Source of the DNA: Actinomycetota bacterium
GTDB lineage: Bacteria; Actinomycetota; Thermoleophilia; Solirubrobacterales; Solirubrobacteraceae
Direction: 5' to 3'
DNA: 64,000 nt
Assembly (NCBI GenBank): GCA_018268595.1
Contig: JAFDWH010000001.1
Span: 1 to 64,000, forward strand
Below are positions 407-29,993 of the stretch, piece by piece (within the stretch, counting starts at the first letter, position 1; every line of letters begins with the position of its first letter). A program made the position numbers and the translations under genes. The notes beneath the pieces were generated by a model that searched no databases, was not told the DNA's origin, and was given only the letters and a program-made list of their open reading frames with translations.

Positions 407-435
407 TGTACAGGACGTTACGAGCCGTGTAGGGT
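407..435 (+). promoter_or_regulatory. Promoter of TA pair copy 1
   Basis: A TGTACA -35 (407-412) and a TAGGGT -10 (430-435) are separated by exactly 17 bp. The antitoxin ATG at 443 lies about 7 bp after the -10, so the transcript may be leaderless or nearly so. The same arrangement (TTTACA, 17 bp, TAGGGT) is conserved at 29318-29346 before the second copy of the operon, which supports the call. Confidence 0.6.
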
Positions 436-442
436 GGGGTTC

Positions 443-694
443 ATGGCCAGCCGCATCAATCTCTCGCTCGACCCCGAGTACTCCGAGAAGCTCTCGCGGC
501 TCGCCGAGCGGATGCACCTCCAAGAGGGCACACTCGCCAAGTCCCTCCTCTCGACCGCCCTCGACGGCGCCGACCCCGACGCCGCACACATCGTGCAACT
601 CCTCGACGGCATCCCCGGCGCCTACGAGCGCACACAAGAAGGCATCGCGCAGGCCCGGCGCGGCGACGGCGTCTCGCTCGACGACCTCGCATAG
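443..694 (+). CDS. Ribbon-helix-helix antitoxin, TA pair copy 1
   Basis: This is an 83-residue antitoxin-type protein. Its N-terminal half (SRINLSLDPEYSEKLSRLAE and following) has the beta-strand-helix-helix pattern of CopG/RHH DNA-binding proteins. The acidic C-terminal half would bind the toxin. By family knowledge it neutralises the RelE/ParE-like toxin encoded four bases downstream and represses the operon. I chose the ATG at 443 over an in-frame GTG at 434, which lies inside the -10 region. The copy at 29355-29606 differs at only one residue (V/I near the C-terminus), so this is a recent duplication or an exchange. Confidence 0.85.
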   Translation: MASRINLSLDPEYSEKLSRLAERMHLQEGTLAKSLLSTALDGADPDAAHIVQLLDGIPGAYERTQEGIAQARRGDGVSLDDLA

Positions 695-697
695 CCG

Positions 698-988
698 TTG
701 CCTCGCGTCATCGTCACGCCGCGCGCAGTCGCCGACCTCGGTGAGCTGATCGAGACGCTCGGCCTGCCCGCCAACGCCCTCCGACGCGTCCAGACCTCCC
801 TGCGCGTCCTCGAACGCTTCCCGCTCGCCGGCCGCGCGCTGACCGGCGCCTGGGAAGGCACCCGCTTCCTCATCGGCCCCTGGCCCTGGCTGATCCTCGT
901 CTACCTCCACGACGAGCAAGACGACGCTGTCTACATCGTCGCCGCACACGACGGACGCGGCTCCTCCGCAGCCACCAGCGCCCGCTGA
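698..988 (+). CDS. RelE/ParE-superfamily toxin, TA pair copy 1
   Basis: A 96-residue toxin of the RelE/ParE fold: start PRVIVTPRAVADLGELIETL, then PLAGRAL, then the C-terminal strands FLIGPWPWLILVYLHDE and VYIVAAHDGRG. It begins with TTG four bases after the antitoxin stop, so the two genes are co-transcribed and probably coupled. RelE members cleave mRNA on the ribosome and ParE members poison gyrase; the sequence alone does not decide between them. A near-identical toxin is at 29611-29901. The minus-strand gene at 1003 converges on it with a 14-bp gap. Confidence 0.85.
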   Translation: MPRVIVTPRAVADLGELIETLGLPANALRRVQTSLRVLERFPLAGRALTGAWEGTRFLIGPWPWLILVYLHDEQDDAVYIVAAHDGRGSSAATSAR

Positions 989-1002
989 CGGTGCCGGCTG
1001 CC

Positions 1003-13263: not shown

Positions 13264-13338
13264 ATAGCGGGGGAACGATTCGCCGCCATTAGCGACCGGC
13301 GGATCCCCGTAGAAGTCGCAGTTCCGTGGCCGACGTAA
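13263..13338. repeat. tRNA-3'-end-like dispersed repeat, type B, copy 1
   Basis: The repeat starts TATAGCGGGGGAACGATTCG and runs through CCATTAGCGACC, then GGATCCCCGTAGAAGTCG and TTCCGTGGCCGACGTAA. The same sequence with a few changes is at 17210-17244 (left half only), 21138-21210 and 26669-26743. This copy marks the left edge of the accessory island. Confidence 0.75.
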
Positions 13339-13370: not shown

Positions 13371-14675
13371 TTACCGGTCCCGAAAGCGCTCAACGCCGCG
13401 GAGAAAGCCCGCCGCCTTCTGCTGATCGAGTTGGAAGCTCGAGGTTGCTGCCGGCATGCGACTGCGCGTCGTCGTGATCAACGGCTTGGCAAGAGGCGAG
13501 GAGAGCTTCGCCAGCATCTTCGGGCCGACGGTGTGGTCCGTGACGTTGCCGAGCAGGCCGATGCCGAGGCCGACACCAGCCCCGACCGGACCGCCGACCG
13601 CGAAACCGGCGGCCGACGAGCTCAGCGTGGTCATTACGCCAAAGCGAAACGCGCGGCGAGCACTTCCGAAGCGCGCCGCAAGCGCCCTCGAATACTTCCG
13701 GGCCGCCTGTTTGACCGGGTCGTCACCGAGGGTGGGATCGGCGTAGTAGCGCTCAAGCTCCGTGATGAACTCCGCCTTGACGTAGGTGATGTCATCGCCG
13801 GCTTGGATGATCTCCTTGAGCAGCGACCAATTCTTACCGACCCGCTTTCGGGCGACGGCGATGTCCGGTCCGAACACGGTCACGCCCTCTGCTTGGCGCT
13901 CGGGGTCCAACGGCCCGAGGGATACGTCGAGATCCAGGTAGGCGGGCGCGCGGCCGTGTACCGCCACCTTGGCGTCAAGCTCCGTGAGCGCGCAACCCCA
14001 CGCGTACTGATAGGCCTCGTTGCCGATCCGCATCAGGGCGATGTGCGCCTCGTCGGACAGGCCGTCCTGAGCATGCAAGCGGTCCGCTTCGCTCTCCCAG
14101 TCGGTACGGTTGGCGCTGGGGCCGCAGTCGGCGAACGCCTTCTGGAACTCGACAAGCTGCCTACGCGGTTCGCCCACGGGAGTCCTGTCGAGCGCATTGT
14201 CGAGCGCCGTCGCGGCGAGCTTCACGAAGATCTGCGACATGTGTCGCGAAGGCCACGGGCTGAAGGAGATCGTGGGATTGACCCCTGCCAGCTTCTCGGC
14301 CCACGAACTGAGCGCGGGCTGGAGCCGCTTCGCGTAGGCGTCCTCGTCAAGCAGACGCCGGGCCGATCTGATGCCCCGGTCCGCCATGTGGTCGGCGAGC
14401 GTCCCGAGCTCGCGCGTGTTGCGCGTGAGGATCTTGACGTATCCCGACTCGACGAACGCGCACAGCGGGCTCGTGTCTTGCTCGATCACGGCTTGCTGAA
14501 GGGCAAGGTTGTTCAGCAGGTATCCATCGTTGATGAGCAATGACCCTCCGAACAGGGCAGCGACCAGCAGGTGATCGTTGAGAGCGCGCAGCGACTTCAC
14601 GGCCACGGCAGCGTCGTGGCGTCCCGCAAAATCGTCGACGAGGCCGAAGTAGGTAGGCGCGAAGTCGGAGGACAC
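13371..14675 (-). CDS. Unrecognised 434-residue protein with hydrophobic Gly/Ala-rich segment
   Basis: I do not recognise this family. The protein has a mostly helical soluble N-terminal 340 residues and a strongly hydrophobic glycine-rich stretch at about 346-377 (SSSAAGFAVGGPVGAGVGLG), followed by a basic tail. A hairpin of this type can insert into membranes, as in colicin-like or glycine-zipper proteins. It is divergent from the AbiEi-like gene at 14808, with only 132 bp between them, and is boxed between two repeats, so it looks like cargo of the same cassette. The second AbiE module lacks it. A role in defence is only a guess. Confidence 0.55.
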   Translation of the reverse strand: MSSDFAPTYFGLVDDFAGRHDAAVAVKSLRALNDHLLVAALFGGSLLINDGYLLNNLALQQAVIEQDTSPLCAFVESGYVKILTRNTRELGTLADHMADRGIRSARRLLDEDAYAKRLQPALSSWAEKLAGVNPTISFSPWPSRHMSQIFVKLAATALDNALDRTPVGEPRRQLVEFQKAFADCGPSANRTDWESEADRLHAQDGLSDEAHIALMRIGNEAYQYAWGCALTELDAKVAVHGRAPAYLDLDVSLGPLDPERQAEGVTVFGPDIAVARKRVGKNWSLLKEIIQAGDDITYVKAEFITELERYYADPTLGDDPVKQAARKYSRALAARFGSARRAFRFGVMTTLSSSAAGFAVGGPVGAGVGLGIGLLGNVTDHTVGPKMLAKLSSPLAKPLITTTRSRMPAATSSFQLDQQKAAGFLRGVERFRDR

Positions 14676-14784
14676 CTCGAGAGTCTAATTCCCGCCACTC
14701 ACAGGCGGACCGCGATGAACCGCTCGCGACCACGACTCCCAAGATCGAGGATCAAGACCCGCCCCGTCCGTGTCGATATGCTAA

Positions 14785-14802
14785 GTGTTCCGTAGGAAAA
14801 AC
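14785..14802 (+). promoter_or_regulatory. Putative AbiEi operator overlapping the ribosome site, copy 1
   Basis: GTGTTCC-GTAG-GAAAAAC is an imperfect 7-bp inverted repeat six bases before the ATG at 14808. It covers the AGGA ribosome site. The second module carries a perfect version at 26802-26819, and the surrounding TATGCTA...CGTAGGAAAAACTTG is also conserved. AbiEi proteins are known to repress their own operon by binding inverted repeats. Confidence 0.5.
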
Positions 14803-14807
14803 TTGTC

Positions 14808-15521
14808 ATGAAGGTTCCGGGATCAGAGAGCACAGCAGAGCAGGTTCGTCGCCGAGTAGTGGCCGGCGGGGAGCGCTTCTGGCGTCACGAGGACTTCGAG
14901 GGCCTGTCGCCTTCGGGCGTCGCGACGACGCTGTCGCGTCTGGCCCGCGAGGGTGAGCTGCAGCGTGTGCGCAAGGGCGTCTACTTCCGCCCGCGCCAGA
15001 CTGTGATCGGCCCGAGCATCCCGGGCGCCACCGCGGCGATCGCCAGCTCTCTGCGTACCCCGATTCACCCTGCAGGCTTGTCGGCTGCCAACGTGCTCGG
15101 TCTCTCGACGCAGAATCCGGCGCGAGGAGAGTTCGCCACGCCAGCGAGTGATCCGCCAACCGCGCTCGCGGGAAGCCGGGTCCGCACCCGTCGGCCGCGT
15201 TCCCGGGCGACGCTGACCTCAGAGGAGGGCGCGCTGCTCGAGCTGCTGCGCGATCGCGCCACGACGTCGGATCTCGCACCCGCCGAGACGGCGCAGCGCT
15301 TGCAGGAGCTGCTGAGCGACGGCGAGCGCTTCGCGCGCCTCGCCCAAGCGGCGTCAGAGGAGCCTCCGCGCGTGCGAGCGATGCTCGGCGCGCTCGGCGA
15401 GCTCGCAGGCGCCGAGGAACAGCACGTGCGTGCGCTGCGCAAGAGCCTGAACCCACTCTCGCGCTTCGACTTCGGCATGCTCTCGACGCTGCCCAACGCA
15501 CGAGACTGGCAGGCGAAGTGA
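14808..15521 (+). CDS. AbiEi-like antitoxin, module copy 1
   Basis: A 237-residue protein with an N-terminal winged-helix domain (about 20-65: GGERFWRHEDFEGLSPSGVA ... RKGVYFRPR), as in AbiEi-type antitoxin/transcriptional repressors. The C-terminal half, expected to bind the toxin, is helical. In type IV systems AbiEi counters the AbiEii nucleotidyltransferase without direct inhibition and autoregulates. The stop overlaps the toxin start (GTGA at 15518-15521). It is close in sequence to the copy at 26825-27541. Confidence 0.75.
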   Translation: MKVPGSESTAEQVRRRVVAGGERFWRHEDFEGLSPSGVATTLSRLAREGELQRVRKGVYFRPRQTVIGPSIPGATAAIASSLRTPIHPAGLSAANVLGLSTQNPARGEFATPASDPPTALAGSRVRTRRPRSRATLTSEEGALLELLRDRATTSDLAPAETAQRLQELLSDGERFARLAQAASEEPPRVRAMLGALGELAGAEEQHVRALRKSLNPLSRFDFGMLSTLPNARDWQAK

Positions 15522-16474
15522 AGCTCTGCGAACACCCAGACTTCGCGGCACTCGTGGTCGCCACCGCACAGGCGAACGGTCTCAACGAGCAGTTCGTGGA
15601 GAAGGACTACTACGTCACCGAAGTGCTGCGAATCGTCGCTGAGGCCTACGGCGCGAAAGTGATCTTCAAGGGCGGGACGAGCCTTTCGAAGGGCTGGGCG
15701 CTGATCGACCGCTTCTCCGAAGACGTCGACCTGTTCGTCGACCCCGCCCGCTTCAACCCGCCACTGCAGGGAGCCCGCGCCATCGACCGCGAGCTGCGCA
15801 CGCTGCGCGATCTTGTCGCTGGGCACCCTGGGCTCGATCTCGTGCCGGAGCTCCGGCAGACGATCGGCGGTCGCGGCCGCGCCGATCACCTCGCCTACGT
15901 CACCCGCTTCGACGCGCTGCCCGGTGTTGCGAGCACCGTCCGCCTCGAGCCCGGCGTCCAGAGCGGCGACCACCCCGTAGAGCGGCGAACTATCGAATCG
16001 CTCATCGCCGTGTTCCTGCGCGAGCAAGATCAGACCGATGTCGCCGAGGATCTCGAACCGTTCGAGATGACCCTGCTGCACTTCCGGCGCACGTTCGTCG
16101 AGAAGCTCTTCACGATCCACTCGAAGGTCATGCGACTGCTCGAAGACGGCACGCCGGTCGCCCGCGACGCCCGCCACTATGCGGACCTGCACGCGCTCGC
16201 CAGCCGCCCAGAAGTCCTGGCCATGCTCCAATCCGACGAGTACCGGGAAATTCGCGACGACTACGACGAACTCAGCTCCCAGTGGTTCCCACGGGGCCAC
16301 CGACCGCCGGCGGGACTCAGCTTCCGGCAGAGCCCCGCACTCTTCCCGCCCGCCCAACTCCGCGAACAGCTCGCCGCCGACTATGCCTCGCAGTGCGAGC
16401 TGCTGTTCCCTGGCGACTTCCCATCGTTCGCAGCCGTGCTCGGGAGCTTCGAACGTCTGCGGGAATGGCTCTGA
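15518..16474 (+). CDS. AbiEii/AbiGii nucleotidyltransferase toxin, module copy 1
   Basis: A 318-residue protein of the nucleotidyltransferase fold. VIFKGGTSLSKGW (residues 48-60) and FSEDVDLF (66-73) are the GG(T/S)xxxK...(E/D)DxD active-site motifs of AbiEii-like toxins, which transfer nucleotides to tRNA or other targets and stop growth. It starts with GTG inside the antitoxin stop; copy 2 uses ATG at the same place. The 3' end overlaps the start of a third gene, which is unusual for a two-gene AbiE system. Confidence 0.85.
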   Translation: MKLCEHPDFAALVVATAQANGLNEQFVEKDYYVTEVLRIVAEAYGAKVIFKGGTSLSKGWALIDRFSEDVDLFVDPARFNPPLQGARAIDRELRTLRDLVAGHPGLDLVPELRQTIGGRGRADHLAYVTRFDALPGVASTVRLEPGVQSGDHPVERRTIESLIAVFLREQDQTDVAEDLEPFEMTLLHFRRTFVEKLFTIHSKVMRLLEDGTPVARDARHYADLHALASRPEVLAMLQSDEYREIRDDYDELSSQWFPRGHRPPAGLSFRQSPALFPPAQLREQLAADYASQCELLFPGDFPSFAAVLGSFERLREWL

Positions 16475-17157
16475 TGAAAGAGCGCTCCGACTTCGAGGAG
16501 GCGCTCTCCGCGGTTCAGGCCTTCGGCGCCGGTGCCGCGCTGACAGCGCGAATCGCAGACCTCGAGACACGCCTCCAAGGCAAGACGCGGCGCAAGGCCG
16601 CCACCCTCCTCGCCGATGACCACGTCGATGAGACCGCACTCAGCGGAGCACTGACGATCAAGCGTCTCAGCGCCCAGATCGACGTCGTCATCCACGCGCT
16701 TGGGATCCTGACCTCGCTCCCGTACGTGCTCGAGCCCGGCGAGGTCATCGAGTCCCTCTCACTCGGAGCCGGCAACACCGGCCGCCAACACGACCTCGAA
16801 ACCGACCGCCAGATCGCCGAGTTCAAGTTCATCCAATGGCGCGGCGGACCAGAGTCCATCCGCCAGAACAACGTCTTCATCGACATCTTCAACCTCGCCA
16901 ACGCAAGAACGAAGAAGCGACGCGTCCTCTACCTGCTCGACAAGCACCACGCACTCCGCTTCCTCGGCAATCGGCGCGCGATCCCAAGTGTGCTGAGCAA
17001 AAATGCCACGGTCCACGACCAGTTCCAGGCCGCGCATCAGGACAAGTTCGCGACCGTCCACGAGTACTGGGCCACCGTGCAGGACCTCATCGAGATCGTC
17101 GACCTCCGGGACATCGTGCCGGCCTTCAGCAGAACGATGTCCGACGACGTGACGTGA
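16465..17157 (+). CDS. PD-(D/E)XK nuclease-like third component of the AbiE module, copy 1
   Basis: A 230-residue protein without a name I can assign. Residues 1-65 are helical. Residues 70-140 show a helix (AQIDVVIHALGILTSLPYVL), an E-rich strand (GEVIESLSLG), D110/D114 and then AEFKFIQW with E119 and K121, followed by a helix with Gln. This is the order of the restriction-endonuclease-like D...ExK core. The start at ATG 16465 (ATG GCT) is conserved in copy 2 and overlaps the toxin gene by 10 bp; ATG 16474 is an alternative. Nuclease activity is inference. It is coupled to the toxin and was duplicated together with it. Confidence 0.6.
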   Translation: MALMKERSDFEEALSAVQAFGAGAALTARIADLETRLQGKTRRKAATLLADDHVDETALSGALTIKRLSAQIDVVIHALGILTSLPYVLEPGEVIESLSLGAGNTGRQHDLETDRQIAEFKFIQWRGGPESIRQNNVFIDIFNLANARTKKRRVLYLLDKHHALRFLGNRRAIPSVLSKNATVHDQFQAAHQDKFATVHEYWATVQDLIEIVDLRDIVPAFSRTMSDDVT

Positions 17158-17159
17158 GC

Positions 17160-17244
17160 TGTACCCAGAGGCCCTGCGAAATGACCTCTCTACATGGGGG
17201 AGGTGCTTCTATAGCGGGGGAACGATTGGGTCCCATTAGCGACC
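17160..17244. repeat. Module-end repeat plus tRNA-like repeat type B, copy 2
   Basis: The left part (TGTACCCAGAGGCCCTGCGA, then ATGACCTCTC...GGGGGAGGTGCTTC) follows directly after the nuclease-like gene and contains a CCTC/GAGG hairpin. The right part (CTATAGCGGGGGAACGATTG ... CATTAGCGACC) is the type B core. After GCGACC the similarity to the other copies ends. The rest of 17245-17419 shows nothing recognisable apart from the start region of the next TA pair. Confidence 0.75.
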
Positions 17245-17419
17245 GTAGCGTGATGGTCGAGCGCCACGTCAGATGGGAGCAGAATCGCCGATGACCGCGG
17301 GAGAAGTGACGGCCGCAGCCGGCGCCGCGAGACGCTCGTCGCGCGGCGCACGTCTTCCTTGCCGTGCCACCGCAACCCAGCAGATGCATGCGCCCGCTGG
17401 TCGCGCTACCGTTGGTTGC

Positions 17420-17656
17420 ATGACTGCGAAGGAGCATCTGAGAACGGTCGTCGGCGAGCTCTCCGAGCACGAGGCGGCCGACACGCTCGCGTTCATCGCT
17501 CGCCGACGCGACGCGCTCGGCGAGCTGCTCGCGTCCGCCCCGGTCGACGACGAGCCGACGACGCCCGACGAGGACGCAGGCACAGCCGAGGCGCGCGCGC
17601 AGATCGCACGTGGCGAGGTGTTCTCCGCCGAGGACATCCGCCGCGAGTTCGCGTGA
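17420..17656 (+). CDS. Antitoxin-like protein of a second TA type
   Basis: A 78-residue acidic protein (MTAKEHLRTVVGELSEHEAA ... EVFSAEDIRREFA). The helical N-terminus and the C-terminal tail, typical of toxin-wrapping segments, suit an antitoxin, but no DNA-binding fold can be named with certainty. The stop overlaps the toxin start (GTGA, 17653-17656). The start is ATG 17420, with a TACCGT hexamer about 7 bp upstream, which may indicate a leaderless mRNA. It is unrelated to the TA pair at 443-988. Confidence 0.7.
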   Translation: MTAKEHLRTVVGELSEHEAADTLAFIARRRDALGELLASAPVDDEPTTPDEDAGTAEARAQIARGEVFSAEDIRREFA

Positions 17657-17928
17657 GCGATCCCGGCGGCTGGACCGGCGGCTGGAGCTTCACCGCACGC
17701 GCCCGCCGTGACATGCGCAAGCTCGACCGGCCCGTGCAACGCCGCGTGATCGAGGCGCTCGACCGACTCGTCGCGGAGCCGCCGCAGGGCGATGTCGTCA
17801 AGCTCGCCGGCGTCGACGAGGAATGGCGTCTGCGCGTCGGCGATTGGCGCGTACGCTTCACCCGCGACGACCACGGCATCGTGCAGGTACTGCGCGTCTT
17901 GCCACGCGGCCGCGCCTACGATCGCTGA
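17653..17928 (+). CDS. RelE-like toxin
   Basis: A 91-residue toxin of the RelE family. It shows FTARARRDMRKLDRPVQRRV, then VKLAGVDEEWRLRVGDWRVRF and the last strand IVQVLRVLPRGRAYDR. Basic residues and the terminal R..AY..R pattern match RelE-type mRNA interferases that act in the ribosomal A site. It starts at GTG 17653 overlapping the antitoxin stop. Confidence 0.9.
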   Translation: MSDPGGWTGGWSFTARARRDMRKLDRPVQRRVIEALDRLVAEPPQGDVVKLAGVDEEWRLRVGDWRVRFTRDDHGIVQVLRVLPRGRAYDR

Positions 17929-17985
17929 ACCGTGATCCGGCGTCCCGAAGGACGATACCGCCGCACTAGAAGCTAGGGTAACGCC

Positions 17986-20070
17986 GTGGGGACCAGCCCC
18001 ATGCGTCCATTTGCCGTGCCGGGGATCGCAGCGGTCGCTCTTGCGGTGCTGCTCGCGGTCGCACCGAGTAGCTCGCCGACGCCGGTGCCTGCGACGGCAG
18101 TTGAAGCAGCGCCGAATGCCGCACCGTCGCCTACGGCGAAGGCGGACGTCAGCCGGCGCACCGGCCCGCTCTCCTTTAGCTCGGCTTCGTACACGTGGGA
18201 CTGGAGCGATCTGAGCGGGGCCGATGGCGTCGAGGTTGTCGTGCTTAACGACGCAGCGACGCCCGCCGACGTCTGCATCCGGTTGGGCGACCTCGGGCTG
18301 AGACAGCAGATCGATCCGACGAGAGCCGCTCCGATCACGACCGCGGACGTCGTGCGGGTCCACGTCCGCAAGCGCGTCCCGCCCGCCGGAGACGCGTGGG
18401 TCGGCTTCAGAGCCACGGCGGACAGGAGACTTGCGCCGGGCAGCTACACCGGCTGGGTCACGGCGACCGACCGCGCGACGAAGACCGTCGCACGCGCTGC
18501 CGTGACGCTGACCGTGCCGAGCGGCAAGGTGGCACCGAGACCGCTGGTCAGAACGCTGCGCGTCACCGCCCTGCGCTGGGTGCCCTTCATGACGTCCACC
18601 GTGGACGTCCACGAGGCCGTCATCCCGCTCGACGGGAAGGCCGGCGATGTGACCGCCGACAGACTCGCGCTTGACAGAAATGCGGTGCTCGGCGGCCTCA
18701 GCGGCAGCGGCACGGGCACCGGTGTGGTCCGCTACGACGGCACGATTAAGACGCTGCGCGACGGCCTCGTGGGTGCACGCCTCGCGGTCGACCTCCAGGA
18801 CGGCGACCCAGGCGACTACAGCGGCACGATCGACCTCCCGCCCGACGACGACGCCGGCTCGGTGGACCTGACCGTCTCGCTGAAGGACGCGGTCATCGTG
18901 CCGAGCATCGTGCTGCTCATCGGCGTTCTCCTCGCGTTCTTGATCCGGCGCTATCTCGGCAGCCAGCGAGACGTGCTCGTGCTGCGTGCCCGCGTCGGCG
19001 AGCTGGCGGCGGCGGCGCAAGCTGCGGAGCAGGCGTTCCAGAGAGCCGCGCGAGGCGAGTCATGGAGCACCTATGCGATAAGCGACCTCGCCACGGGCGA
19101 GGTCGCCGCGCAAGAGGCAGTCGATCGCCTCGCCGCCGAGGGACAGGTGGACTCGCTGGACACGGACGCGGTCGCGGAGGTGGAGCGTCAGCTCCAGGAG
19201 CTCAAGGCCGACGCGGAGACGCTCGGACAGCTCGACGACGCGTTCCGGGCGCTCGACGCCGCCCTGAGAACGATCGTCGAGCTCGGGCCGATTGACGGGG
19301 TCCAGCCGGATGCCGATTCCAACGAACCCGCCTTCCTGACGCGCGCATCGGAATGGCTCGACGGCGAGCCGCTGCCAGCCGAGCAGCTGCGCGCGCGCCT
19401 TGCCGACATCGTCGCCGCGACCACGCTCGCCGAGGAATGGAGATCGCTGCGAGACCAGGGGGTCGAGGACTGGGAGCGCGTCGAGCAGTTGAAGGCGGCG
19501 GACGCCGATCTGGGCGCCGATCAGCGTAAGCAGCGGGACGAAGCTGCGACTGAGCTTGCAGACGCGTGGAACGCGATGTGGGCCGAGCCGAACCCCTCTG
19601 CCGTCGTGACTCCGGAGCGGCAAGACGTGCTGAAAAGAGCCAGCGCACGGATCGCGACGCTGACAGCCGCGCTCGAAGCCGACCGAGCCGCCGCAGGTGC
19701 GCTCCCGGACACGAGCGCCGTCGCGATGCTCGACACCGGGGAAGCCACGATCAGCCCGAATGCGTACGCGGCAGCGACCGATGTCGGCCTCCTGCCCACG
19801 CCACCGGACCCCGCCGAGCGTGCCCAAGCGGTGCGCGCGGTGATCCAGCGCAACGACCGGATCGTGAAGGGCGTCGCCGTCGTGGTGGCGGTGACTACCG
19901 GGCTCACCGCGCTGTACTTTGGCAAGCCGTTCGGAACGTGGACCGACTACTTCTCCGCGCTGCTCTGGGGCTTCACCGCGACGACGGCGATCGATGCGCT
20001 CGCGACCGCGTTCGGGCTGCGCTCGACTGCTGATCGCCTGACCGGCTCCGCAGCGGCGAGAGCTGCCTGA
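17986..20070 (+). CDS. Large membrane protein with extracytoplasmic domain and cytoplasmic coiled coil
   Basis: A 694-residue protein of no family I know. Residues 6-30 are a signal/anchor (FAVPGIAAVALAVLLAV). Residues 40-300 are beta-rich and probably outside the cell. A membrane helix follows at about 303-322 (IVPSIVLLIGVLLAFLI). Residues 330-620 are charged and helical, and the last 70 residues hold two more membrane helices (GVAVVVAVTTGLTALYFG and YFSALLWGFTATTAIDAL). It thus has a sensor-like outside and a long inner stalk. The stop overlaps the start of the caspase-like gene (TGATG at 20068-20072), so the two are made together. GTG 17986 sits 6 bp after a TAGGGT; ATG 18001 is an alternative start. 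Confidence 0.7.
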   Translation: MGTSPMRPFAVPGIAAVALAVLLAVAPSSSPTPVPATAVEAAPNAAPSPTAKADVSRRTGPLSFSSASYTWDWSDLSGADGVEVVVLNDAATPADVCIRLGDLGLRQQIDPTRAAPITTADVVRVHVRKRVPPAGDAWVGFRATADRRLAPGSYTGWVTATDRATKTVARAAVTLTVPSGKVAPRPLVRTLRVTALRWVPFMTSTVDVHEAVIPLDGKAGDVTADRLALDRNAVLGGLSGSGTGTGVVRYDGTIKTLRDGLVGARLAVDLQDGDPGDYSGTIDLPPDDDAGSVDLTVSLKDAVIVPSIVLLIGVLLAFLIRRYLGSQRDVLVLRARVGELAAAAQAAEQAFQRAARGESWSTYAISDLATGEVAAQEAVDRLAAEGQVDSLDTDAVAEVERQLQELKADAETLGQLDDAFRALDAALRTIVELGPIDGVQPDADSNEPAFLTRASEWLDGEPLPAEQLRARLADIVAATTLAEEWRSLRDQGVEDWERVEQLKAADADLGADQRKQRDEAATELADAWNAMWAEPNPSAVVTPERQDVLKRASARIATLTAALEADRAAAGALPDTSAVAMLDTGEATISPNAYAAATDVGLLPTPPDPAERAQAVRAVIQRNDRIVKGVAVVVAVTTGLTALYFGKPFGTWTDYFSALLWGFTATTAIDALATAFGLRSTADRLTGSAAARAA

Positions 20071-21041
20071 TGGCGGAGACGGTGCTCGACGCGATCCGGT
20101 CGGAGGCATATCTGGCATGGCAGCGCCGGACGAACCGCTGCGCGATCGATGCGACGCCGGACGCCTATCTCGACAATTGCGCAATCGCCTTCCCGGCGGC
20201 CGGCCGGCACCACGATCTCGCGGAGGCGGTGAGACTGCTGGAGCCGGTGCAGATGCGACCCGGCGCCCTGATCGTCGGCCACGGCGCGCCGGGGCGCCTC
20301 GCGGTCGGTGCGGGCAGATCTCTCGACTTCCCCACCCAGCGACTCCGCGACGACGAGGCGTGGCGATGGGAACCGGCGACCGCCCCCCTCTCGGGACGGT
20401 GCCGGCGGCTGACGCTGCTCGGCTGCAACGTCGGTGCCGGCGTGCGAGGCGTCGAACTGCTGCGCCAGCTCGCCTGTCACCTCGACGCGACCGTAATGGC
20501 GCCGACGGGCATAGTGTTTTCGATGGCAGACGGCAGCCTTCGGCTGCAGGAAGGCTCCGTCTGGCAGAAGGTCCGCTGCGACGACGTCCCCGATCCGATC
20601 GAGCAACCGATGCTCAGCCGACTCAAGAAGCGTCTCTACACCAACGCCGGTGCATCGGAGCCGACGACCGGCGAACCGATGGCGCCGTTCGCGACGGGGA
20701 ACGTTGTCCTGGTCGCATTCGAGCCGTCCGACGACGAGCACGTCGCGCGCGCCTTCGACGGGCCGCTCGCGGGCGCGCTGATTCGAGAGGTCGACCCCCA
20801 CCCGCTCATCGTGCGAGGCGGCGCTCCCGGCGGGCTGGTCTGGGGGCGCATCGTCGTACAGACTGCAGCCCCCGCCGCAGAGGACGGCAGTGAAGTCTTC
20901 ACATACACGCTGTGGTCCGGGTCGCTGCTGCAAGACGAGCAGCGACCAGATCACTTCTTCGCCGCCTCCGCACGCTTTGCCGCACAGATCGAGCCCGTCG
21001 GCGGCGACGCGACGGAGCCGGGGCCGACTGCGACGGCATGA
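20070..21041 (+). CDS. Caspase/DUF4347-like putative cysteine protease
   Basis: A 323-residue protein. IVGHGAPGRLAVG (H71) and LTLLGCNVGAG (C119), followed by GVELLRQLACHLDATVMAPT, reproduce the His-Gly and Gly-Cys blocks of DUF4347/caspase-fold (clan CD) proteins: SHG...GCN...G..L...L...V.A. The His/Cys dyad spacing of 48 residues suits this fold. Residues 160-323 are a second domain I cannot name. There is no signal peptide, so it should act in the cytoplasm on the inner stalk of its membrane partner or on another target. Proteolytic activity is inferred. Confidence 0.6.
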   Translation: MAETVLDAIRSEAYLAWQRRTNRCAIDATPDAYLDNCAIAFPAAGRHHDLAEAVRLLEPVQMRPGALIVGHGAPGRLAVGAGRSLDFPTQRLRDDEAWRWEPATAPLSGRCRRLTLLGCNVGAGVRGVELLRQLACHLDATVMAPTGIVFSMADGSLRLQEGSVWQKVRCDDVPDPIEQPMLSRLKKRLYTNAGASEPTTGEPMAPFATGNVVLVAFEPSDDEHVARAFDGPLAGALIREVDPHPLIVRGGAPGGLVWGRIVVQTAAPAAEDGSEVFTYTLWSGSLLQDEQRPDHFFAASARFAAQIEPVGGDATEPGPTATA

Positions 21042-21089
21042 TCTCGATCAGAGCGCAGGCAATCGCGCTGACGCCTCGGCATGACGCCC

Positions 21090-21210
21090 TGTACCCAGAG
21101 ACACGCGAGATGGACCTCTCTGTTGGGGACGTAGTCCCTTAGCCAGGGAACGATTCGGTCGCATTAGCGACCGACGGATTGCCGTAGAAGTCGGGGGTCC
21201 GTGGCCGACC
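21090..21210. repeat. Module-end repeat plus tRNA-like repeat type B, copy 3
   Basis: It reads TGTACCCAGAGACACGCGAG, then GGACCTCTCTGTTGGGGACG (diverged), then AGCCAGGGAACGATTCGGTC, GCATTAGCGACC and the right half GGATTGCCGTAGAAGTCGGG...TCCGTGGCCGACC. The TAGCGGGGG block has decayed to TAGCCAGGG. It separates the caspase-like pair from the secreted-protein/GH30 segment. In the surrounding gap 21042-21534 I see only this repeat and the small ORF at 21352. Confidence 0.7.
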
Positions 21211-21351
21211 GTGCGAGACGTGTCGCCCGACAGCCGAGGGTCTTACTGATCAAGTTCGACTCCTTTCCCTTCGGGGTTCACGGCCGACCGAGGCCAGCCA
21301 AGAGCGCGACGGCCCCGCCCGCTGCACGAGGCGAGGCCGACCACAGCTCCT

Positions 21352-22319: not shown

Positions 22320-25079
22320 CTAGTGACAAGTCGCCCAGATCCCGTTGAGGTCCGGGAGCTGATTGAGCTCCCATGACGTGAGGACGTCCGGCCCCGGCAT
22401 CCCGTGGCTCTTCAGGCAGTTGTAGGTGGCAGCGTCGGCGATCCAGCGCCGATGCCCGTCCGAGCCCACCAGCCACGCGGTCTTCTGCGTATTGGGGTCG
22501 TTGTCCCACTGGACGATGTGGCCGACGTAGCGGCTCGGCGGCCCCTCGCTCGTCCAGACGTAGCCGCCGGCGGCGTTGTAGAGCGCGAGCTTGCCGTCGT
22601 CGCGCACGACGAGCCATGCGGCGCCGGACCCCACGGTCCCGCTCGCCCACACCGCCGTCCCGCTGGCGTACTCGACGAGGTTTCCATCCCCCTGCAGCAC
22701 CAGTTCGTCGCCGCCCCGGCCGGTCGACCACACGACGCGGCCCGACGTGTCGGTCAGCATCAGGTCCGAGCCGCTGAGCGTCAAACGGTACCGGCCGCCG
22801 CCGGACTGGGCGTAGAGCCCCGTCTGCAGCATGCTGTTCACGCCGATCCGGTCGACCCCGCAGACCGCCCAGACGCCGTTGAGATCCGGCATCCGGTCGA
22901 GCTCCCACGAGGTCAGCACGTCCGGCCCGGGCGCCCCGCGGCTCTTCAGGCAGTTGTACGTCGCGATGTCGGAGATCCAGCGCCGATGGCCGTCCGGGCC
23001 GACCAGCCATGCCGTCCTCTGGGCGTTGGGGTCGCTGTCCCACTGCACGATGTGGCCGACGTAGCTGCTCGGCGGCGCCTCGCTCGTCCAGGCAAGCTGG
23101 CCGGCGCCGTTGTAGAGCGCGAGCTTGCCGTCGTCGCGCACGACGAGCCACGCCGACCCCGACCCGACGGTCCCGCTCGCCCACACCGGCCGCCCGCCGG
23201 CGTACTCGACGAGGTTTCCATCGCGCTGCAGCACCAGCTCGTCGCCGCCGCGGCCCGTCGACCACACGACGTGCCCGCCAGCGTCCGTCAGCGCAAGGTC
23301 GGAGCCGCTGAGCGACAGCCGGTATCGGCCGTTGTGCGACTGGGCGTAGAAGCCGGTCTGCAAGATGCTGTCGACGCCGATCCGATCCGCGCCACACACC
23401 GCCCACACGCCGTTGAGGTCGGGCAGCGCGTCGAGCTCGCCAGCGGAGAGAACGTCGGGCCCCGGCGCTCCGTAGCGCTTCAGGCAGTTGTAGGTCGCGA
23501 TGTCGGAGATCCAGCGCCGGCGCCCGTCCGGCCCCACCAGCCACGCCGTTCTCTGCCGCTTCCTGTCGCCGGCCCACTGCACGATGTGGCCGCGGCGGTC
23601 GACATGGCGAACAGCGGTGTTGACCGCCACCACCACGATCGTCCCGTCGGGGTTGCGGAAGGCGACCGTCTCGATCGACCCGTCGCCCGGGTCGCTCGAC
23701 CCGATCCGCACCGCGCCGGGCGCGACGAACTTCGAGAAATGCGCCCAGTAGTAATAGTCCTCGCTGGGCTGATAGGCGCCCGTCGCACGGTCGATCGCGA
23801 TCATGCCGCGGCAGTCGCCGCAGCCGCCGACGTGGGGACCGCCGTCGGACCCGAGCGCGAGGCTCCAGTACAGCGAGGTGCGCGCCCAGTTGACGATCGG
23901 CCCGATGAGCGCGTTGCGCACCTCCCACACGAGGTTCTCGGAAGCGTTCGGCGCCGCGGTGAAGCCGCTGCACTCCGTCATGTAGATGGCGGTTCTCGGG
24001 TGGTCGCGGTGGAACTGCGACTGGACCGCAGGCCCGCTCTGATGGGGCCCCGTGCCGTCGTAGCAGTGGTAGCCGATCGCGTCGACGCGGCCGCCGTCGG
24101 CCAGCAGGGTGTCCGGGTAGCTCGCCGCCCGGCCGCCGTCATACCAGTTGTGGTCCCATCCAAGGATGCGGACCGAGCCCAGCCCGGCGGCGTCCAGCGC
24201 GGTGCGCAGGTCGCGCGAGAGCCTCGCCTCCTGGTCCGGCTCCAGGTTCATCGTCGCGTACGAGGCGTTGCAGTTGTGCGGCTCGTTCTGCAGCGAGACC
24301 ATGCGGACGGGGAGGCCGTAGCCGCTGCGGTACGCCGTGACGAACTTCGTGATGTATTGCGCGTAGACGCCATACAGCGAGGGGTCGAGCGTGTTGGACC
24401 CGCAGGTTCCGTGGAACGACCGACCGGTCTTCATCCACGCCGGCGCGCTCCACGGCGTGCCGAGCAGCGTCAGGTCGGGGCGCAGACGGTGCGCCTCCTG
24501 CAGCAGCGGGACGATGCTCACCGTGTCGTGCGCGACCGAGAAGGCGCTCAGGCTCGGGTCGGCGATCCCCGGCAGCAAGGTGTCGTAGTCGTAGTCCTCG
24601 GTCGCGAGGTCCGACGCGCCCATCGGCACCCGCACGAAGCGCAGACGCGCACCGGAGGAGCCGAACAGCGCGTTCATGATCGCGTCGCGGTACGGGGAGG
24701 CGGCGATCAGCGCGGCGGCGGAGTCGGTCATCGCGCCGCCGAACCCCGCCATGTGCTGATACGTCGCGCCCGCGTCGACGCCGACGACGCGGCCGACGCC
24801 GCCGGGCGTCGTCGTAGGCAGGTCGGGCTGGCGCTCGAGACGCTTCTCGAGCACGGACCCGACGGCGGTCGTCAGCCACTCGTGAACCACGCCGTGGTCG
24901 GGCGCCCACAGGTACGTGGCGACCGAGCTGGGGGGCAGCGCGGTGTCGAATACCGCGCCCGCCCCGCGAACCTGGAACGGAGTTCCAGCGTCCGCTCTCG
25001 ACGCGGCGATCGGCAGCAGGAGCAGCCCGCACGCAAGCAGCGTCACCCGCCGTGAACGACTCACCAGCCTTCGCCGCAT
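22320..25079 (-). CDS. Secreted GH30-like glycosidase with alternating repeat and lectin domains
   Basis: A 919-residue secreted enzyme. Residues 1-31 are a signal peptide. Residues 95-490 are a glycoside hydrolase family 30-like TIM barrel plus side beta domain: GFGGAMTDS, acid/base E266 in LQNEP and nucleophile E369 in YMTECSG. Residues 497-918 alternate three 65-residue units (GHIVQW ... TAWLVGPDG ... ATYNCLK ... PDLNGVWAVC, at 497-562, 675-740 and 853-918) with two bulb-lectin (B-type mannose-binding) domains (about 570-670 and 750-850: GGDELVLQRDGNLVEY). The enzyme probably binds and cuts a glucan, xylan or glycolipid outside the cell. It is divergent from a ROK regulator. Confidence 0.8.
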   Translation of the reverse strand: MRRRLVSRSRRVTLLACGLLLLPIAASRADAGTPFQVRGAGAVFDTALPPSSVATYLWAPDHGVVHEWLTTAVGSVLEKRLERQPDLPTTTPGGVGRVVGVDAGATYQHMAGFGGAMTDSAAALIAASPYRDAIMNALFGSSGARLRFVRVPMGASDLATEDYDYDTLLPGIADPSLSAFSVAHDTVSIVPLLQEAHRLRPDLTLLGTPWSAPAWMKTGRSFHGTCGSNTLDPSLYGVYAQYITKFVTAYRSGYGLPVRMVSLQNEPHNCNASYATMNLEPDQEARLSRDLRTALDAAGLGSVRILGWDHNWYDGGRAASYPDTLLADGGRVDAIGYHCYDGTGPHQSGPAVQSQFHRDHPRTAIYMTECSGFTAAPNASENLVWEVRNALIGPIVNWARTSLYWSLALGSDGGPHVGGCGDCRGMIAIDRATGAYQPSEDYYYWAHFSKFVAPGAVRIGSSDPGDGSIETVAFRNPDGTIVVVAVNTAVRHVDRRGHIVQWAGDRKRQRTAWLVGPDGRRRWISDIATYNCLKRYGAPGPDVLSAGELDALPDLNGVWAVCGADRIGVDSILQTGFYAQSHNGRYRLSLSGSDLALTDAGGHVVWSTGRGGDELVLQRDGNLVEYAGGRPVWASGTVGSGSAWLVVRDDGKLALYNGAGQLAWTSEAPPSSYVGHIVQWDSDPNAQRTAWLVGPDGHRRWISDIATYNCLKSRGAPGPDVLTSWELDRMPDLNGVWAVCGVDRIGVNSMLQTGLYAQSGGGRYRLTLSGSDLMLTDTSGRVVWSTGRGGDELVLQGDGNLVEYASGTAVWASGTVGSGAAWLVVRDDGKLALYNAAGGYVWTSEGPPSRYVGHIVQWDNDPNTQKTAWLVGSDGHRRWIADAATYNCLKSHGMPGPDVLTSWELNQLPDLNGIWATCH

Positions 25080-26495: not shown

Positions 26496-26620
26496 ACATC
26501 AGGACGAGTTCGCAACCGTCCGCGAGTACTGAGCACCGTCGAGGACCACGTCGAGATCATCGACCTCCGCGACCTCGTGCCGGCGTTCAGGAGCACGATG
26601 TCCGCCGGCCAGTCGCGGGA
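26496..26620 (+). pseudogene. 3' remnant of a third copy of the nuclease-like gene
   Basis: About 125 bp match the last part of the nuclease-like genes ending at 17157 and 29176 (CATCAGGACGAGTTCGC ... GACCTCGTGCCGGCGTTC). A one-base deletion at GTACTGAGCACC and loss of the stop codon make it non-functional. It is followed, like the full copies, by the TGTACCCAGAG repeat. The rest of the module is missing, so the ROK/GH30 segment seems to have replaced it. Confidence 0.75.
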
Positions 26621-26743
26621 TGTACCCAGAGACCCCTGAAATGACCTCTCTATAGGGGGAGGTGCTTCCATAGCGGGGGAACGATTCGGTCCCATTAGCG
26701 ACCAGTGGATCGCCGTGGAAGTCGGGGTTCCGTGGCCGCCGTA
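26621..26743. repeat. Module-end repeat plus tRNA-like repeat type B, copy 4
   Basis: This is the most complete copy: TGTACCCAGAGACCCCTGAA, ATGACCTCTCTATAGGGGGA (hairpin CCTCTC/GGGGGAGG), CATAGCGGGGGAACGATTCG, GTCCCATTAGCGACC and GGATCGCCGTGGAAGTCGGG ... TTCCGTGGCCGCCGTAA. It lies between the remnant and the second AbiE module. The gap 26475-26824 is filled by the remnant, this repeat and the AbiE operator. Confidence 0.8.
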
Positions 26744-26801
26744 ACCCGCGATCAGGCCACGTTCCGACCGCCGGAAGAATGCCGCTTGAAGTATATGCTA
26801 T

Positions 26802-26819
26802 GTTTTTCGTAGGAAAAAC
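26802..26819 (+). promoter_or_regulatory. Putative AbiEi operator overlapping the ribosome site, copy 2
   Basis: GTTTTTC-GTAG-GAAAAAC is a perfect 7-bp inverted repeat with a four-base spacer, six bases before the ATG at 26825. A TATATGCTATG just upstream can serve as the -10. Compare the imperfect site at 14785-14802. Confidence 0.55.
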
Positions 26820-26824
26820 TTGCC

Positions 26825-27541
26825 ATGAAGACGGGATCGAGACCAGCGAGCGTGGCCGCGCAGGTTCGCCGACGGGTGCTCACCGGCGGCGAGCGCTTCT
26901 GGCGTCACGAGGACTTTGCGGGTCTGTCGCCTTCGGGCGTCGCAACCGCGCTGTCGCGCCTTGTCCGCGACGGTGAGCTGCAGCGCGTTCACAAAGGCGT
27001 CTACTTTCGCCCGCGGGCGACCGTGATCGGTCCCAGCGTTCCCGCGGCCAGCGGGGCCACCGCGGCCTCGCTGCGTTCCCCGCTGCATCCGGCGGGCCTC
27101 TCGGCCGCCAACCTGCTGGGCCTCTCCACGCAGAACCCAGCACGGAGCGAGTACGCGACGTCGGCGAGCGATCCACCAACCGCGCTCGCAGGGAGCCGGG
27201 TCCGTACTCGACGGCCACGGGCACGAGCTGGCCTGACCGCCGAGGAGGGAGCCCTGCTCGAGCTGCTGCGCGATCGTGCATCAACGTCGGACCTCCCGCC
27301 CGCCGAGACAGCACGCCGGCTCCAAGACCTGCTTCACGACCGCGAGCGCTTCGCGCGTCTCTCCCGCGCTGCGACGCAGGAGCCTCCCCGCGTGCGAGCG
27401 ATACTCGGAGCCCTCGGCGAGCTCACGGGCGCCGAGGAGCAACATGTGCGCGAGCTCCGCGCGAGCCTGAACCCGCTCTCGCGCTTCGACTTCGGCGTGC
27501 TCTCGACGCTGCCCAACGCGCGAACCTGGCAGGCGAAATGA
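26825..27541 (+). CDS. AbiEi-like antitoxin, module copy 2
   Basis: A 238-residue paralogue of the protein at 14808, nearly colinear. The winged-helix region GGERFWRHEDFAGLSPSGVA and the tail LNPLSRFDFGVLSTLPNAR are conserved. Changes are spread along the gene, so the copies are not a very recent duplication. The stop overlaps the toxin start (ATGA at 27538-27541). With two close AbiEi copies, cross-regulation of both operons is likely because the operators are similar. Confidence 0.75.
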   Translation: MKTGSRPASVAAQVRRRVLTGGERFWRHEDFAGLSPSGVATALSRLVRDGELQRVHKGVYFRPRATVIGPSVPAASGATAASLRSPLHPAGLSAANLLGLSTQNPARSEYATSASDPPTALAGSRVRTRRPRARAGLTAEEGALLELLRDRASTSDLPPAETARRLQDLLHDRERFARLSRAATQEPPRVRAILGALGELTGAEEQHVRELRASLNPLSRFDFGVLSTLPNARTWQAK

Positions 27542-28494
27542 GACTCTGCGAACACCCAGACTTCCCCGCGCTGCTGGTCGCGACCGCACAGGCGACCGGC
27601 TTGAACGAGCAGTTCGTGGAGAAGGACTGCTACGTCACCGAGGTGCTGCGGATCGTCGCCGACGCCTACGGCGAGAAGGTGATCTTCAAGGGAGGGACGA
27701 GCCTCTCGAAGGGCTGGGCGCTGATCGACCGCTTCTCCGAAGACGTCGACCTGTTCGTCGACCCCGCCCGCTTCGACCCGCCACTGGAAAGCGCCCGCGC
27801 CGTCGACCGCGAGCTGCGCATGCTGCGCGATCGGGTCGCCAGGCAGCCTGGGCTCGATGTCGTGCCTGAGCTCGGCCAGACGATCGGGGGTCGCGGCCGT
27901 GCCGATCATCTCGCCTACGTCACCCGCTTCGACGAGCTGCCCGGGGTCGCGAGCACCGTCCGGCTGGAGCCCGGCATCCAGAGCGGCGATCACCCGGTCG
28001 AGCAGCGGGCGATCGACTCGCTCGTCGCCGCGTTCCTGTGCAAGCGAGGCCAGAACGACATCGCCGAGGATCTCGAACCGTTCGAGATGACCCTGCTGCA
28101 CTTCCGGCGAACCTTCGTCGAGAAGCTCTTCACGATCCACTCGAAGGTCATGCGGCTGCTGGATGACGGCACCCCGGTCGCGCGCGACGCGCGCCACTAC
28201 GCCGACCTACACGCACTCGCAAGCCGCCCCGAAGTCCTCGCCATGGTCCAGTCCGACGAGTACCGGGAGATCTGCCGCGACTACGACGCGCTCAGCTCCC
28301 GGTGGTTCCCCCGCAGCCACCGGCCACCAGCGGGACTGAGCTTCCGTGAAAGTCCGGCGCTCTTTCCCGCAGCCGACCTCCGCGAGCAACTCGCGGCCGA
28401 CTACGACACGCAGTGCGCGCTGCTGTTCCCCGGCGACTTCGCATCCTTCGTCGACGTGCTCGGAAGCTTCGAGCGTCTGCGGCGATGGCTGTGA
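27538..28494 (+). CDS. AbiEii/AbiGii nucleotidyltransferase toxin, module copy 2
   Basis: A 318-residue protein, the same length as copy 1, with KGGTSLSKGW and RFSEDVDLFVDPARF intact. One change is EKDYYV to EKDCYV near residue 31. The toxin looks functional. It ends 10 bp inside the start of the third gene, as in copy 1, so the overlap is conserved. Confidence 0.85.
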   Translation: MRLCEHPDFPALLVATAQATGLNEQFVEKDCYVTEVLRIVADAYGEKVIFKGGTSLSKGWALIDRFSEDVDLFVDPARFDPPLESARAVDRELRMLRDRVARQPGLDVVPELGQTIGGRGRADHLAYVTRFDELPGVASTVRLEPGIQSGDHPVEQRAIDSLVAAFLCKRGQNDIAEDLEPFEMTLLHFRRTFVEKLFTIHSKVMRLLDDGTPVARDARHYADLHALASRPEVLAMVQSDEYREICRDYDALSSRWFPRSHRPPAGLSFRESPALFPAADLREQLAADYDTQCALLFPGDFASFVDVLGSFERLRRWL

Positions 28495-29176
28495 CCGGAC
28501 ATCGCTCCGACATCGAGGAGGCACTCACCGCAGTTCAAGCCTTCGGCGCGGAACCAGCACTGACGGCGCGGATCGCAGGTCTGGAGACGCGCCTTCAAGG
28601 CAAGACACGCGACAAGGCCACCGCGCTGCTCACCGCCGACAAGATCGACGAGACGGCACTCAGCGGAGCGTGACGATCAAGCGCCTCAGCGCCCAGATCG
28701 ACGTCGTCATTCACGCGCTCGGGATCCTGACCTCTCTTCCCTACCTCCTCGAGCCCGGAGAGGTCATCGAATCCCTCTCACTCGGCGCCGGCAACACCGG
28801 CCGCCATCACGACCTCGTGACCGATCGCCAGATCGCCGAGTTCAAGTTCATCCAATGGCGCGGCGGACCGGAGTCGATTCGTCAGAACAGCGTGTTCGTC
28901 GACATCTTCAACCTCGCGAACGCGAACACGAACAAGCGACGCGTCCTCTACCTCCTCGACAAGCAACACGCGCTCCGCTTCCTCGGTAACCGGCGCGCGA
29001 TCGCAAGCGTGCTCAGCAAGAACGCCAGCGTCCAGGCCAGGTTCCGCGTGGCACATCAGGACGAGTTTGCGACCGTCCGCGAGTACTGGGCCACCGTCGA
29101 GGACCGAGTCGAGATCATCGACCTCCGCGACCTCGTACCGGCGTTCAAGCGCACGAGGTCTGACAACCAGTCGTGA
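28485..29176 (+). pseudogene. Nuclease-like third component, copy 2, frameshifted
   Basis: This is the same protein as at 16465-17157, but one base is missing near 28666-28673 (GCGGAGCACTGACG in copy 1 becomes GCGGAGCGTGACG). Translation from ATG 28485 therefore stops at 28671-28673 after the helical N-terminus. The remaining frame keeps the whole D...AEFKF core (HDLVTDRQIAEFKFIQW) and the C-terminus to 29176. It is either a pseudogene or a miscalled base. The good conservation after the break suggests that the break is recent. Confidence 0.75.
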
Positions 29177-29178
29177 GC

Positions 29179-29265
29179 TGTACCCAGAGGCCCTGCGAAA
29201 TGACCTCTCTATAAGGGGGAGGTACTTCCATAGCGGGGGCGGGTTTTGAACACCAACCCGCGACC
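29179..29265. repeat. Module-end repeat plus tRNA-like repeat type A, copy 2
   Basis: The left part is TGTACCCAGAGGCCCTGCGA with ATGACCTCTCTATAAGGGGG. The right part is CATAGCGGGGGCGGGTTTTG ... AACACCAACCCGCGACC, with the GCGGGTT/AACCCGC hairpin. It joins the end of the AbiE module to the second copy of the RHH/RelE-ParE operon. Confidence 0.75.
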
Positions 29266-29317
29266 GGGTACCGGATGGTGGCGGTGCGGCAGTTGGTCTG
29301 AGCTAAGCACCAACTCC

Positions 29318-29346
29318 TTTACAGAACGTTACGATCCGTGTAGGGT
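29318..29346 (+). promoter_or_regulatory. Promoter of TA pair copy 2
   Basis: TTTACA (29318-29323), 17 bp, TAGGGT (29341-29346). The antitoxin ATG is at 29355. This is the same layout as at 407-435. Confidence 0.6.
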
Positions 29347-29354
29347 AGGGGTTC

Positions 29355-29606
29355 ATGGCCAGCCGAATCAATCTCTCGCTGGACCCCGAGTACTCCGAGA
29401 AGCTCTCGCGGCTCGCCGAGCGGATGCATCTCCAAGAGGGCACGCTCGCCAAGTCCCTCCTGTCGACGGCCCTCGACGGCGCAGACCCCGACGCCGCACA
29501 CATCGTGCAACTCCTCGACGGCATCCCCGGCGCCTACGAGCGCACGCAAGAAGGCATCGCGCAGGCCCGGCGCGGCGACGGCATCTCGCTCGACGACCTC
29601 GCATAG
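29355..29606 (+). CDS. Ribbon-helix-helix antitoxin, TA pair copy 2
   Basis: 83 residues, differing from the product of 443-694 only at one V/I position near the C-terminus (GDGISLDDLA). ATG start after GTAGGGTAGGGG. Its near identity means that either antitoxin should neutralise either toxin. See copy 1 for the domain description. Confidence 0.85.
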   Translation: MASRINLSLDPEYSEKLSRLAERMHLQEGTLAKSLLSTALDGADPDAAHIVQLLDGIPGAYERTQEGIAQARRGDGISLDDLA

Positions 29607-29610
29607 CCGG

Positions 29611-29901
29611 TTGCCCCGCGTCATCGTCACGCCGCGCGCAGTCGCCGACCTCGGTGAGCTGATCGAGACGCTCGGCCTGCCCGCAAACGCCCTCCGACGC
29701 GTCCAGACCTCACTGCGGATCCTGAAACGCTTCCCGCTCGCCGGCCGTGCGCTGACCGGCGCCTGGGAAGGCACCCGCTTCCTCATCGGCCCCTGGCCCT
29801 GGCTGATCCTCATCTACCTCCACGATGAGCAAGGCGACGCCGTCTACGTCGTCGCCGCACACGACGGACGCGGCTCCTCCGCAGCCACCAACGCCCGCTG
29901 A
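29611..29901 (+). CDS. RelE/ParE-superfamily toxin, TA pair copy 2
   Basis: 96 residues with a few conservative changes from the toxin at 698-988 (for example LRILKRF for LRVLERF, and YVVAAHDG for YIVAAHDG). TTG start, four bases after the antitoxin stop. This pair marks the right edge of the accessory island; the OsmC gene that follows is on the other strand. Confidence 0.85.
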   Translation: MPRVIVTPRAVADLGELIETLGLPANALRRVQTSLRILKRFPLAGRALTGAWEGTRFLIGPWPWLILIYLHDEQGDAVYVVAAHDGRGSSAATNAR

Positions 29902-29993
29902 CGCGTCGCAGGGTCCATCTATCAGGCTCGTCGGAATCCACCGTCTCGCCTGAGGTTGCGCTGACTGCCTGCTTGCGCCGGCGGGTGGGGCCC

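What the first reader, a model, noticed from the sequence alone, without database searches (positions are those of the whole stretch)
17986..21041. Membrane protein with inner coiled coil coupled to a caspase/DUF4347-like protein
Two overlapping genes (TGATG) encode a protein with an extracytoplasmic beta domain, at least three membrane helices and a 290-residue inner helical region, and a cytoplasmic protein with a GHG/GCN His-Cys pattern. The layout (sensor outside, protease inside, within a defence island) suits an abortive-infection or signal-triggered protease system that I cannot match to a known one.
Basis: partly seen in the sequence, partly recalled or inferred. Interest (0 to 1): 0.75.

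Follow-up and report, generated by a model that had tools for sequence, protein, structure and literature searches.

The report
Membrane protein paired with DUF4347 protease
An actinobacterium carries, in a patch of DNA crowded with toxin-antitoxin genes, a membrane protein whose gene overlaps that of a probable cysteine protease; the pairing was found nowhere else, so a joint alarm-and-protease function is possible but unproven.

Summary
Two real genes overlap by one base (TGATG, 20068-20072). The first (17986-20070) encodes a signal peptide, an extracytoplasmic beta region, one membrane helix, about 300 mostly helical cytoplasmic residues and two further membrane helices. The second (20070-21041) is a soluble DUF4347 protein: Pfam PF14252 above its curated cut-off. 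Its H71 and C119 are invariant in an alignment with DUF4347 domains from other phyla. A solved DUF4347 member is published as a putative cysteine protease resembling the TcdB protease domain, so "caspase-like cysteine protease" is a fair reading. My own model was too poor to confirm the fold.

Three homologues of the membrane protein in its family have the same architecture but no DUF4347 neighbour, and no close relative of the protease was found in any collection searched.

Context does fit a conflict locus: the pair and a ParE-like toxin pair occupy a 3.9-kb segment between repeats resembling the 3' end of the contig's tRNA-Met gene, next to two AbiE systems. No known defence family matches. 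Most likely a membrane-tethered protease module carried as island cargo; trigger and substrate are inferred.

The parts
17986..20070 (+). Membrane protein gene, 694 aa: signal peptide, extracytoplasmic beta region, TM1, about 305-residue cytoplasmic helical region, TM2-TM3
   Evidence: homologues of the same architecture in G050, G049, G020
18007..18063 (+). Codons of the N-terminal hydrophobic (signal) segment, residues 8-26
   Evidence: hydropathy
18889..18945 (+). Codons of TM1, residues 302-320, followed by RRYL (positive-inside)
   Evidence: hydropathy
18946..19860 (+). Codons of the cytoplasmic helix-rich region, residues 321-625
   Evidence: low-confidence model, composition
19861..20013 (+). 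Codons of TM2 (626-644) and TM3 (658-676) with the conserved G650/D654/Y655 link between them
   Evidence: hydropathy; invariant columns
20070..21041 (+). DUF4347 protein gene, 323 aa, soluble, probable clan CD cysteine protease; residues about 190-323 are an unassigned extension
20280..20282 (+). Codon of H71 (GHG motif), putative catalytic histidine
   Evidence: invariant column
20424..20426 (+). Codon of C119 (LLGCNVGAG motif), putative catalytic cysteine
   Evidence: invariant column
17420..17656 (+). Small ORF upstream of the ParE-like gene, probable antitoxin
   Evidence: position and overlap only; no Pfam match
17656..17928 (+). ParE-family toxin gene, 57 bases upstream of the membrane protein gene
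   Evidence: PF05016 E 2.6e-11
17209..17244 (+). Left boundary repeat of the segment: degenerate tRNA-Met 3'-end-like sequence (reverse strand)
21090..21212 (+). Right boundary repeat of the segment, 81% identical to 26621-26742

Best explanation
The pair is a membrane-associated protease module carried as cargo of a tRNA-Met-associated island. The first protein is a membrane anchor whose outer beta region could sense an envelope change (inferred) and whose inner helical region holds, regulates or is cut by the second protein (inferred). The second protein is a cytosolic DUF4347 cysteine protease of the caspase-like clan, with dyad H71/C119 (supported by family and alignment). When the membrane protein is disturbed, for example by a phage or by envelope damage, the protease would be released or switched on and would arrest or kill the cell (inferred). 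Shown: two overlapping genes, topology, family and dyad, toxin-antitoxin and AbiE neighbourhood. Not shown: interaction, catalysis, trigger, substrate, any defence effect.
For: One-base gene overlap suggests translational coupling. DUF4347 above the curated cut-off with H71 and C119 invariant. A profile of the alignment matches a solved chain, 9qpe_G, named a DUF4347 domain-containing protein (E 3.7e-4), published as the putative cysteine protease Tce1 whose model resembles the TcdB cysteine protease domain (PMC13323088). Topology puts the helical region and the soluble protease on the same side of the membrane (positive-inside rule). Neighbours are conflict genes: ParE, two AbiEi/AbiEii, an RHH/RelE-like pair. 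Lower GC3 than the neighbouring ZIP gene (0.82-0.84 against 0.93) and tRNA-like boundary repeats fit horizontal acquisition.
Against: The pairing was found in no other genome. Three homologues of the membrane protein (G050, G049, G020) have no DUF4347 gene in the 13-16 kb fetched around them. The protease is absent from 150 relatives. No known defence model matches either protein. AlphaFold models were too poor to confirm any fold, and the complex was not modelled.
Confidence: 0.33

Rival explanations
1. Two independent proteins. The membrane protein belongs to a sporadic family of Solirubrobacteraceae that works without a protease, and the DUF4347 gene happens to follow it in this island.
For: Homologues G050, G049 and G020 have the full architecture but no DUF4347 neighbour. 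Islands shuffle cargo.
Against: The two genes overlap by a base and share the same codon composition, which suggests one transcription and translation unit.
Confidence: 0.33
2. A toxin-immunity style pair: the protease is toxic and the membrane protein sequesters or inhibits it at the membrane.
For: Toxin-antitoxin neighbourhood; coupled genes with the partner first, as in many antitoxin-toxin operons. A second effector of the Tce1 paper, Tce2, needs its predicted active site for toxicity in yeast (PMC13323088).
Against: The same paper reports no marked growth effect of either effector in E. coli. An antitoxin of this size and topology would be unusual.
Confidence: 0.15
3. An envelope-maintenance or adhesion role: regulated processing of surface proteins, not defence. 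Many DUF4347 domains sit in very large Ig-like or cadherin-like surface proteins.
For: Several annotated DUF4347-type hits are large surface-type proteins; the membrane protein has an outer beta region with a weak Ig-like match.
Against: The DUF4347 protein here has no signal or membrane segment, so it would sit in the cytoplasm.
Confidence: 0.12
4. The DUF4347 protein is catalytically dead and acts as a structural or binding partner.
For: Only 21-27% identity to other DUF4347 domains; the Pfam match covers positions 52-139 of 164 and the GGDW segment is lost.
Against: His and Cys are both kept within conserved motifs.
Confidence: 0.07

Closest known systems
DUF4347 (Pfam PF14252)
   Same: Sequence family, GHG and GCNV motifs, His-Cys dyad
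   Different: Several annotated members found are parts of very large surface proteins (one CDS of about 25 kb), though short ones exist (Gloeothece); this one is a 323-aa soluble protein whose gene overlaps that of a membrane protein
Pseudomonas aeruginosa Tce1 (PA0256, 9qpe chain G), putative cysteine protease with a DUF4347 domain
   Same: DUF4347 domain with His and Cys aligned to a cysteine protease dyad (PMC13323088, PMC8262886)
   Different: Delivered by a type VI secretion system; no membrane partner described
Bacterial gasdermins with caspase-like proteases
   Same: General idea: a membrane-acting protein with a caspase-like protease as a cell-death module
   Different: No gasdermin match; the partner here is a multi-pass membrane protein with a signal peptide. 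Works-like analogy only
Stand-alone membrane proteins of G050, G049 and G020 (Solirubrobacteraceae)
   Same: Signal peptide, TM, helical region, two TM with a G-x(3)-DY link
   Different: No DUF4347 gene nearby; G050 has a shorter outer region

Membership tests
DUF4347 (PF14252) | Score above curated gathering cut-off | tested here: met
   29.9 bits against 24.6, E 5.7e-7; 30.7 in the genome search
DUF4347 (PF14252) | Conserved His and Cys motifs | tested here: met
   H71 and C119 invariant in a 7-sequence alignment
DUF4347 (PF14252) | Full-length domain | tested here: inconclusive
   Match covers profile positions 52-139 of 164; N-terminal part aligns weakly
Clan CD (caspase-like) cysteine proteases | Caspase-like fold | tested here: inconclusive
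   Own model unusable, pLDDT 36; inferred from solved member 9qpe_G
Clan CD (caspase-like) cysteine proteases | Proteolytic activity | not testable with these tools
   Needs biochemistry
CHAT or Peptidase_C14 families | Match to the Pfam model | tested here: not met
   Only DUF4347 matched at E up to 1
Bacterial gasdermin systems | Gasdermin protein in the operon | tested here: not met
   Membrane protein matches only Big_13 below cut-off, nothing in PADLOC
Catalogued anti-phage defence systems (PADLOC 2.0.0) | Match to a system protein model | tested here: not met
   0 families for both proteins
Conserved two-gene system | The gene pair recurs in other genomes | tested here: not met
   Three membrane-protein homologues without DUF4347 neighbours; protease absent from 150 relatives; genome-contig scan found no relative. 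Distant pairs outside the phylum could be missed

The most novel reading that the evidence does not exclude
A new two-gene immune module in which a membrane protein with an outer sensing region and an inner helical region directly controls a caspase-like DUF4347 protease, giving bacteria an envelope-triggered death switch without gasdermin, nucleotide signal or CRISPR.
Probability: 0.15. Interest if true: 0.72.

Novelty: new variant of a known kind. Interest (0 to 1): 0.4.

Why it matters
DUF4347 is little studied: only four papers in the library mention it, and the one functional lead concerns secreted effectors. A soluble DUF4347 protein coupled to a membrane protein inside a toxin-antitoxin island would offer a compact setting for testing what the domain does in the cell that makes it. 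If the two proteins act together, it would be a membrane-triggered protease switch unlike the catalogued defence systems.

Tried and rejected
AlphaFold of both proteins: mean pLDDT 35.9 and 41.6, so no fold search was run on them. Relatives of the protease in genome contigs, viral contigs, plasmids and phages: none. Hits G285 and G363 for the protease: weak and with a stop inside, taken as chance. DNA motif scan for the TM2-TM3 link: of 3 hits in genome contigs one was the known G050 gene; L014 and L015 were chance. Membrane-protein hit G042 covers only the signal segment and was taken as chance. Family searches in PHROGs, NCBIfam and PADLOC: nothing useful. Single-sequence search of solved structures: nothing. 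Rfam on the island: no family. Tyrosine integrase: none on contig C11. The idea that the repeats are integron attC sites was dropped because they align to the tRNA-Met 3' end.

Full report
Observation. The membrane protein gene runs 17986-20070 and the DUF4347 gene 20070-21041, sharing one base in TGATG. Both show the codon-position GC pattern of coding sequence. The start of the first gene could be GTG 17986 or ATG 18001; both leave the signal segment intact.

Membrane protein. Hydropathy shows an N-terminal signal segment (8-26), a strong membrane helix (302-320) followed by RRYL, and two helices near the C terminus (626-644, 658-676; the last is weak). The region before the first membrane helix is mostly predicted as strands, and the roughly 305 residues after it as helices, in a low-confidence model (mean pLDDT 41.6). 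I use that model only for secondary structure. The only Pfam signal is a sub-threshold Ig-like match. By the positive-inside rule the helical region is cytoplasmic (inference).

DUF4347 protein. It has no membrane segment. Pfam PF14252 matches above the curated cut-off (29.9 against 24.6 bits). Other DUF4347 domains were collected from plasmid records with a consensus query that I wrote from memory and used only as bait. Four of the six retrieved stretches lie in genes annotated DUF4347; the other two have no annotation in the plasmid table. In the alignment H71 and C119 are invariant, in motifs GHGAPG and GCNVGAG. A profile of this alignment matches one solved chain, 9qpe_G (E 3.7e-4), deposited as a DUF4347 domain-containing protein. 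The paper for that entry describes Tce1 as a putative cysteine protease with a His-Cys pair that overlays the TcdB cysteine protease domain, and reports that a second effector, Tce2, impairs yeast growth through its predicted active site (PMC13323088). An earlier paper names PA0256 (Tce1) as a DUF4347 protein (PMC8262886). So the clan CD, caspase-like reading is supported through the family. My own model of the protein failed (pLDDT 35.9), so the fold is not shown here. About 130 C-terminal residues remain unassigned.

Distribution. The protease has no match in 150 relatives. In samples of 396 genomes of the phylum and 279 of the class, no genome but its own has a DUF4347 match over the cut-off. 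Scans of genome contigs, viral contigs, plasmids and phages found no relative. The pattern-based scans reach only close relatives, so distant pairs could be missed. For the membrane protein, a profile found homologues with the same architecture in G050, G049 and G020 of the same family; a record title places G050 in Solirubrobacteraceae. Their identities to the window protein are 30, 23 and 26% in the alignment, low but spanning the molecule, with G650, D654 and Y655 invariant between the last two helices. None has a DUF4347 gene in the 13-16 kb fetched. Their neighbours, judged by reading the translations and not by a family search, look like MurT/GatD and an ABC transporter (G050), a metal-binding transport protein and an acyl-CoA dehydrogenase (G049), and a metallophosphatase (G020).

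Surroundings. Upstream, 57 bases away, lies a ParE-family toxin with a probable antitoxin. Two AbiEi/AbiEii systems, 84% identical over 2.4 kb, lie on either side. An RHH/RelE-like pair at 29.3-29.9 kb has a 94% identical copy at 0.3-1.0 kb; I assigned it by inspection. Repeats at 318, 13265, 17212, about 21140, 26671, 29231 and, beyond the window, 75645 separate these modules. All of those tested align to the 3' end of a tRNA-Met gene at 94946-95019 on the same contig (the 21140 copy was not in that test). Against 20,000 random 40-mers of the contig, 2 to 13 scored as high; some of these will be overlaps with the sites or the tRNA itself. No tyrosine integrase lies on this contig. I read the region as a stack of tRNA-associated island pieces, with the pair as cargo of the 3.9-kb piece 17212-21140. 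That is inference; no empty site was examined.

Mechanism. The best reading is a membrane-associated protease module. Shown: overlapping genes, topology, family, dyad, conflict-gene context. Inferred: that the inner helical region holds or is cut by the protease, that the outer region senses something, and that activation harms the cell. The main rival, two independent proteins, is equally likely on the present evidence because the membrane protein's homologues stand alone. I therefore give 0.33 to each.

Comparison. The protein meets the DUF4347 score and dyad tests. It does not match CHAT or Peptidase_C14, gasdermins or any PADLOC model. It may work like a caspase-gasdermin module, but that is analogy only.

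Verdict. The proposed system is plausible but not conserved as a pair in the genomes searched. Interest 0.4.

Noticed in passing
window 318-352, 13265-13297, 17212-17244, 21140-21172, 26671-26703, 29231-29265; contig C11 75645 and 94946: Repeats resembling the 3' end of a tRNA-Met gene (on the reverse strand) separate modules of toxin-antitoxin, AbiE, sugar-hydrolase and ROK genes. They look like att-site remnants of stacked tRNA-associated islands; similar sequences occur in relatives G020 and G114.
   Followed up: partly
window 14776-17220 and 26793-29239: Two AbiEi/AbiEii modules with a conserved third gene, 84% identical over 2.4 kb. The third gene has no Pfam match.
   Followed up: partly
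window 26496-26620: A remnant of the 3' end of the third AbiE-module gene sits just downstream of the ROK gene, before a boundary repeat, as if left by recombination between module ends.
   Followed up: no
window 314-990 and 29227-29903: Two copies, 94% identical, of a small two-gene module that reads as an RHH antitoxin and RelE-like toxin; similarity starts at the tRNA-like repeat and ends about at the second gene's stop codon.
   Followed up: partly
window 13371-14675 (-): A 434-aa protein with no Pfam match, inside the first AbiE segment, with a glycine-rich hydrophobic stretch near its C terminus.
   Followed up: no
window 22320-25079 (-): A 919-aa secreted protein, by inspection GH30-like with three repeats spaced 534 bases apart, lies between two boundary repeats with small secreted proteins and a ROK gene.
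   Followed up: no
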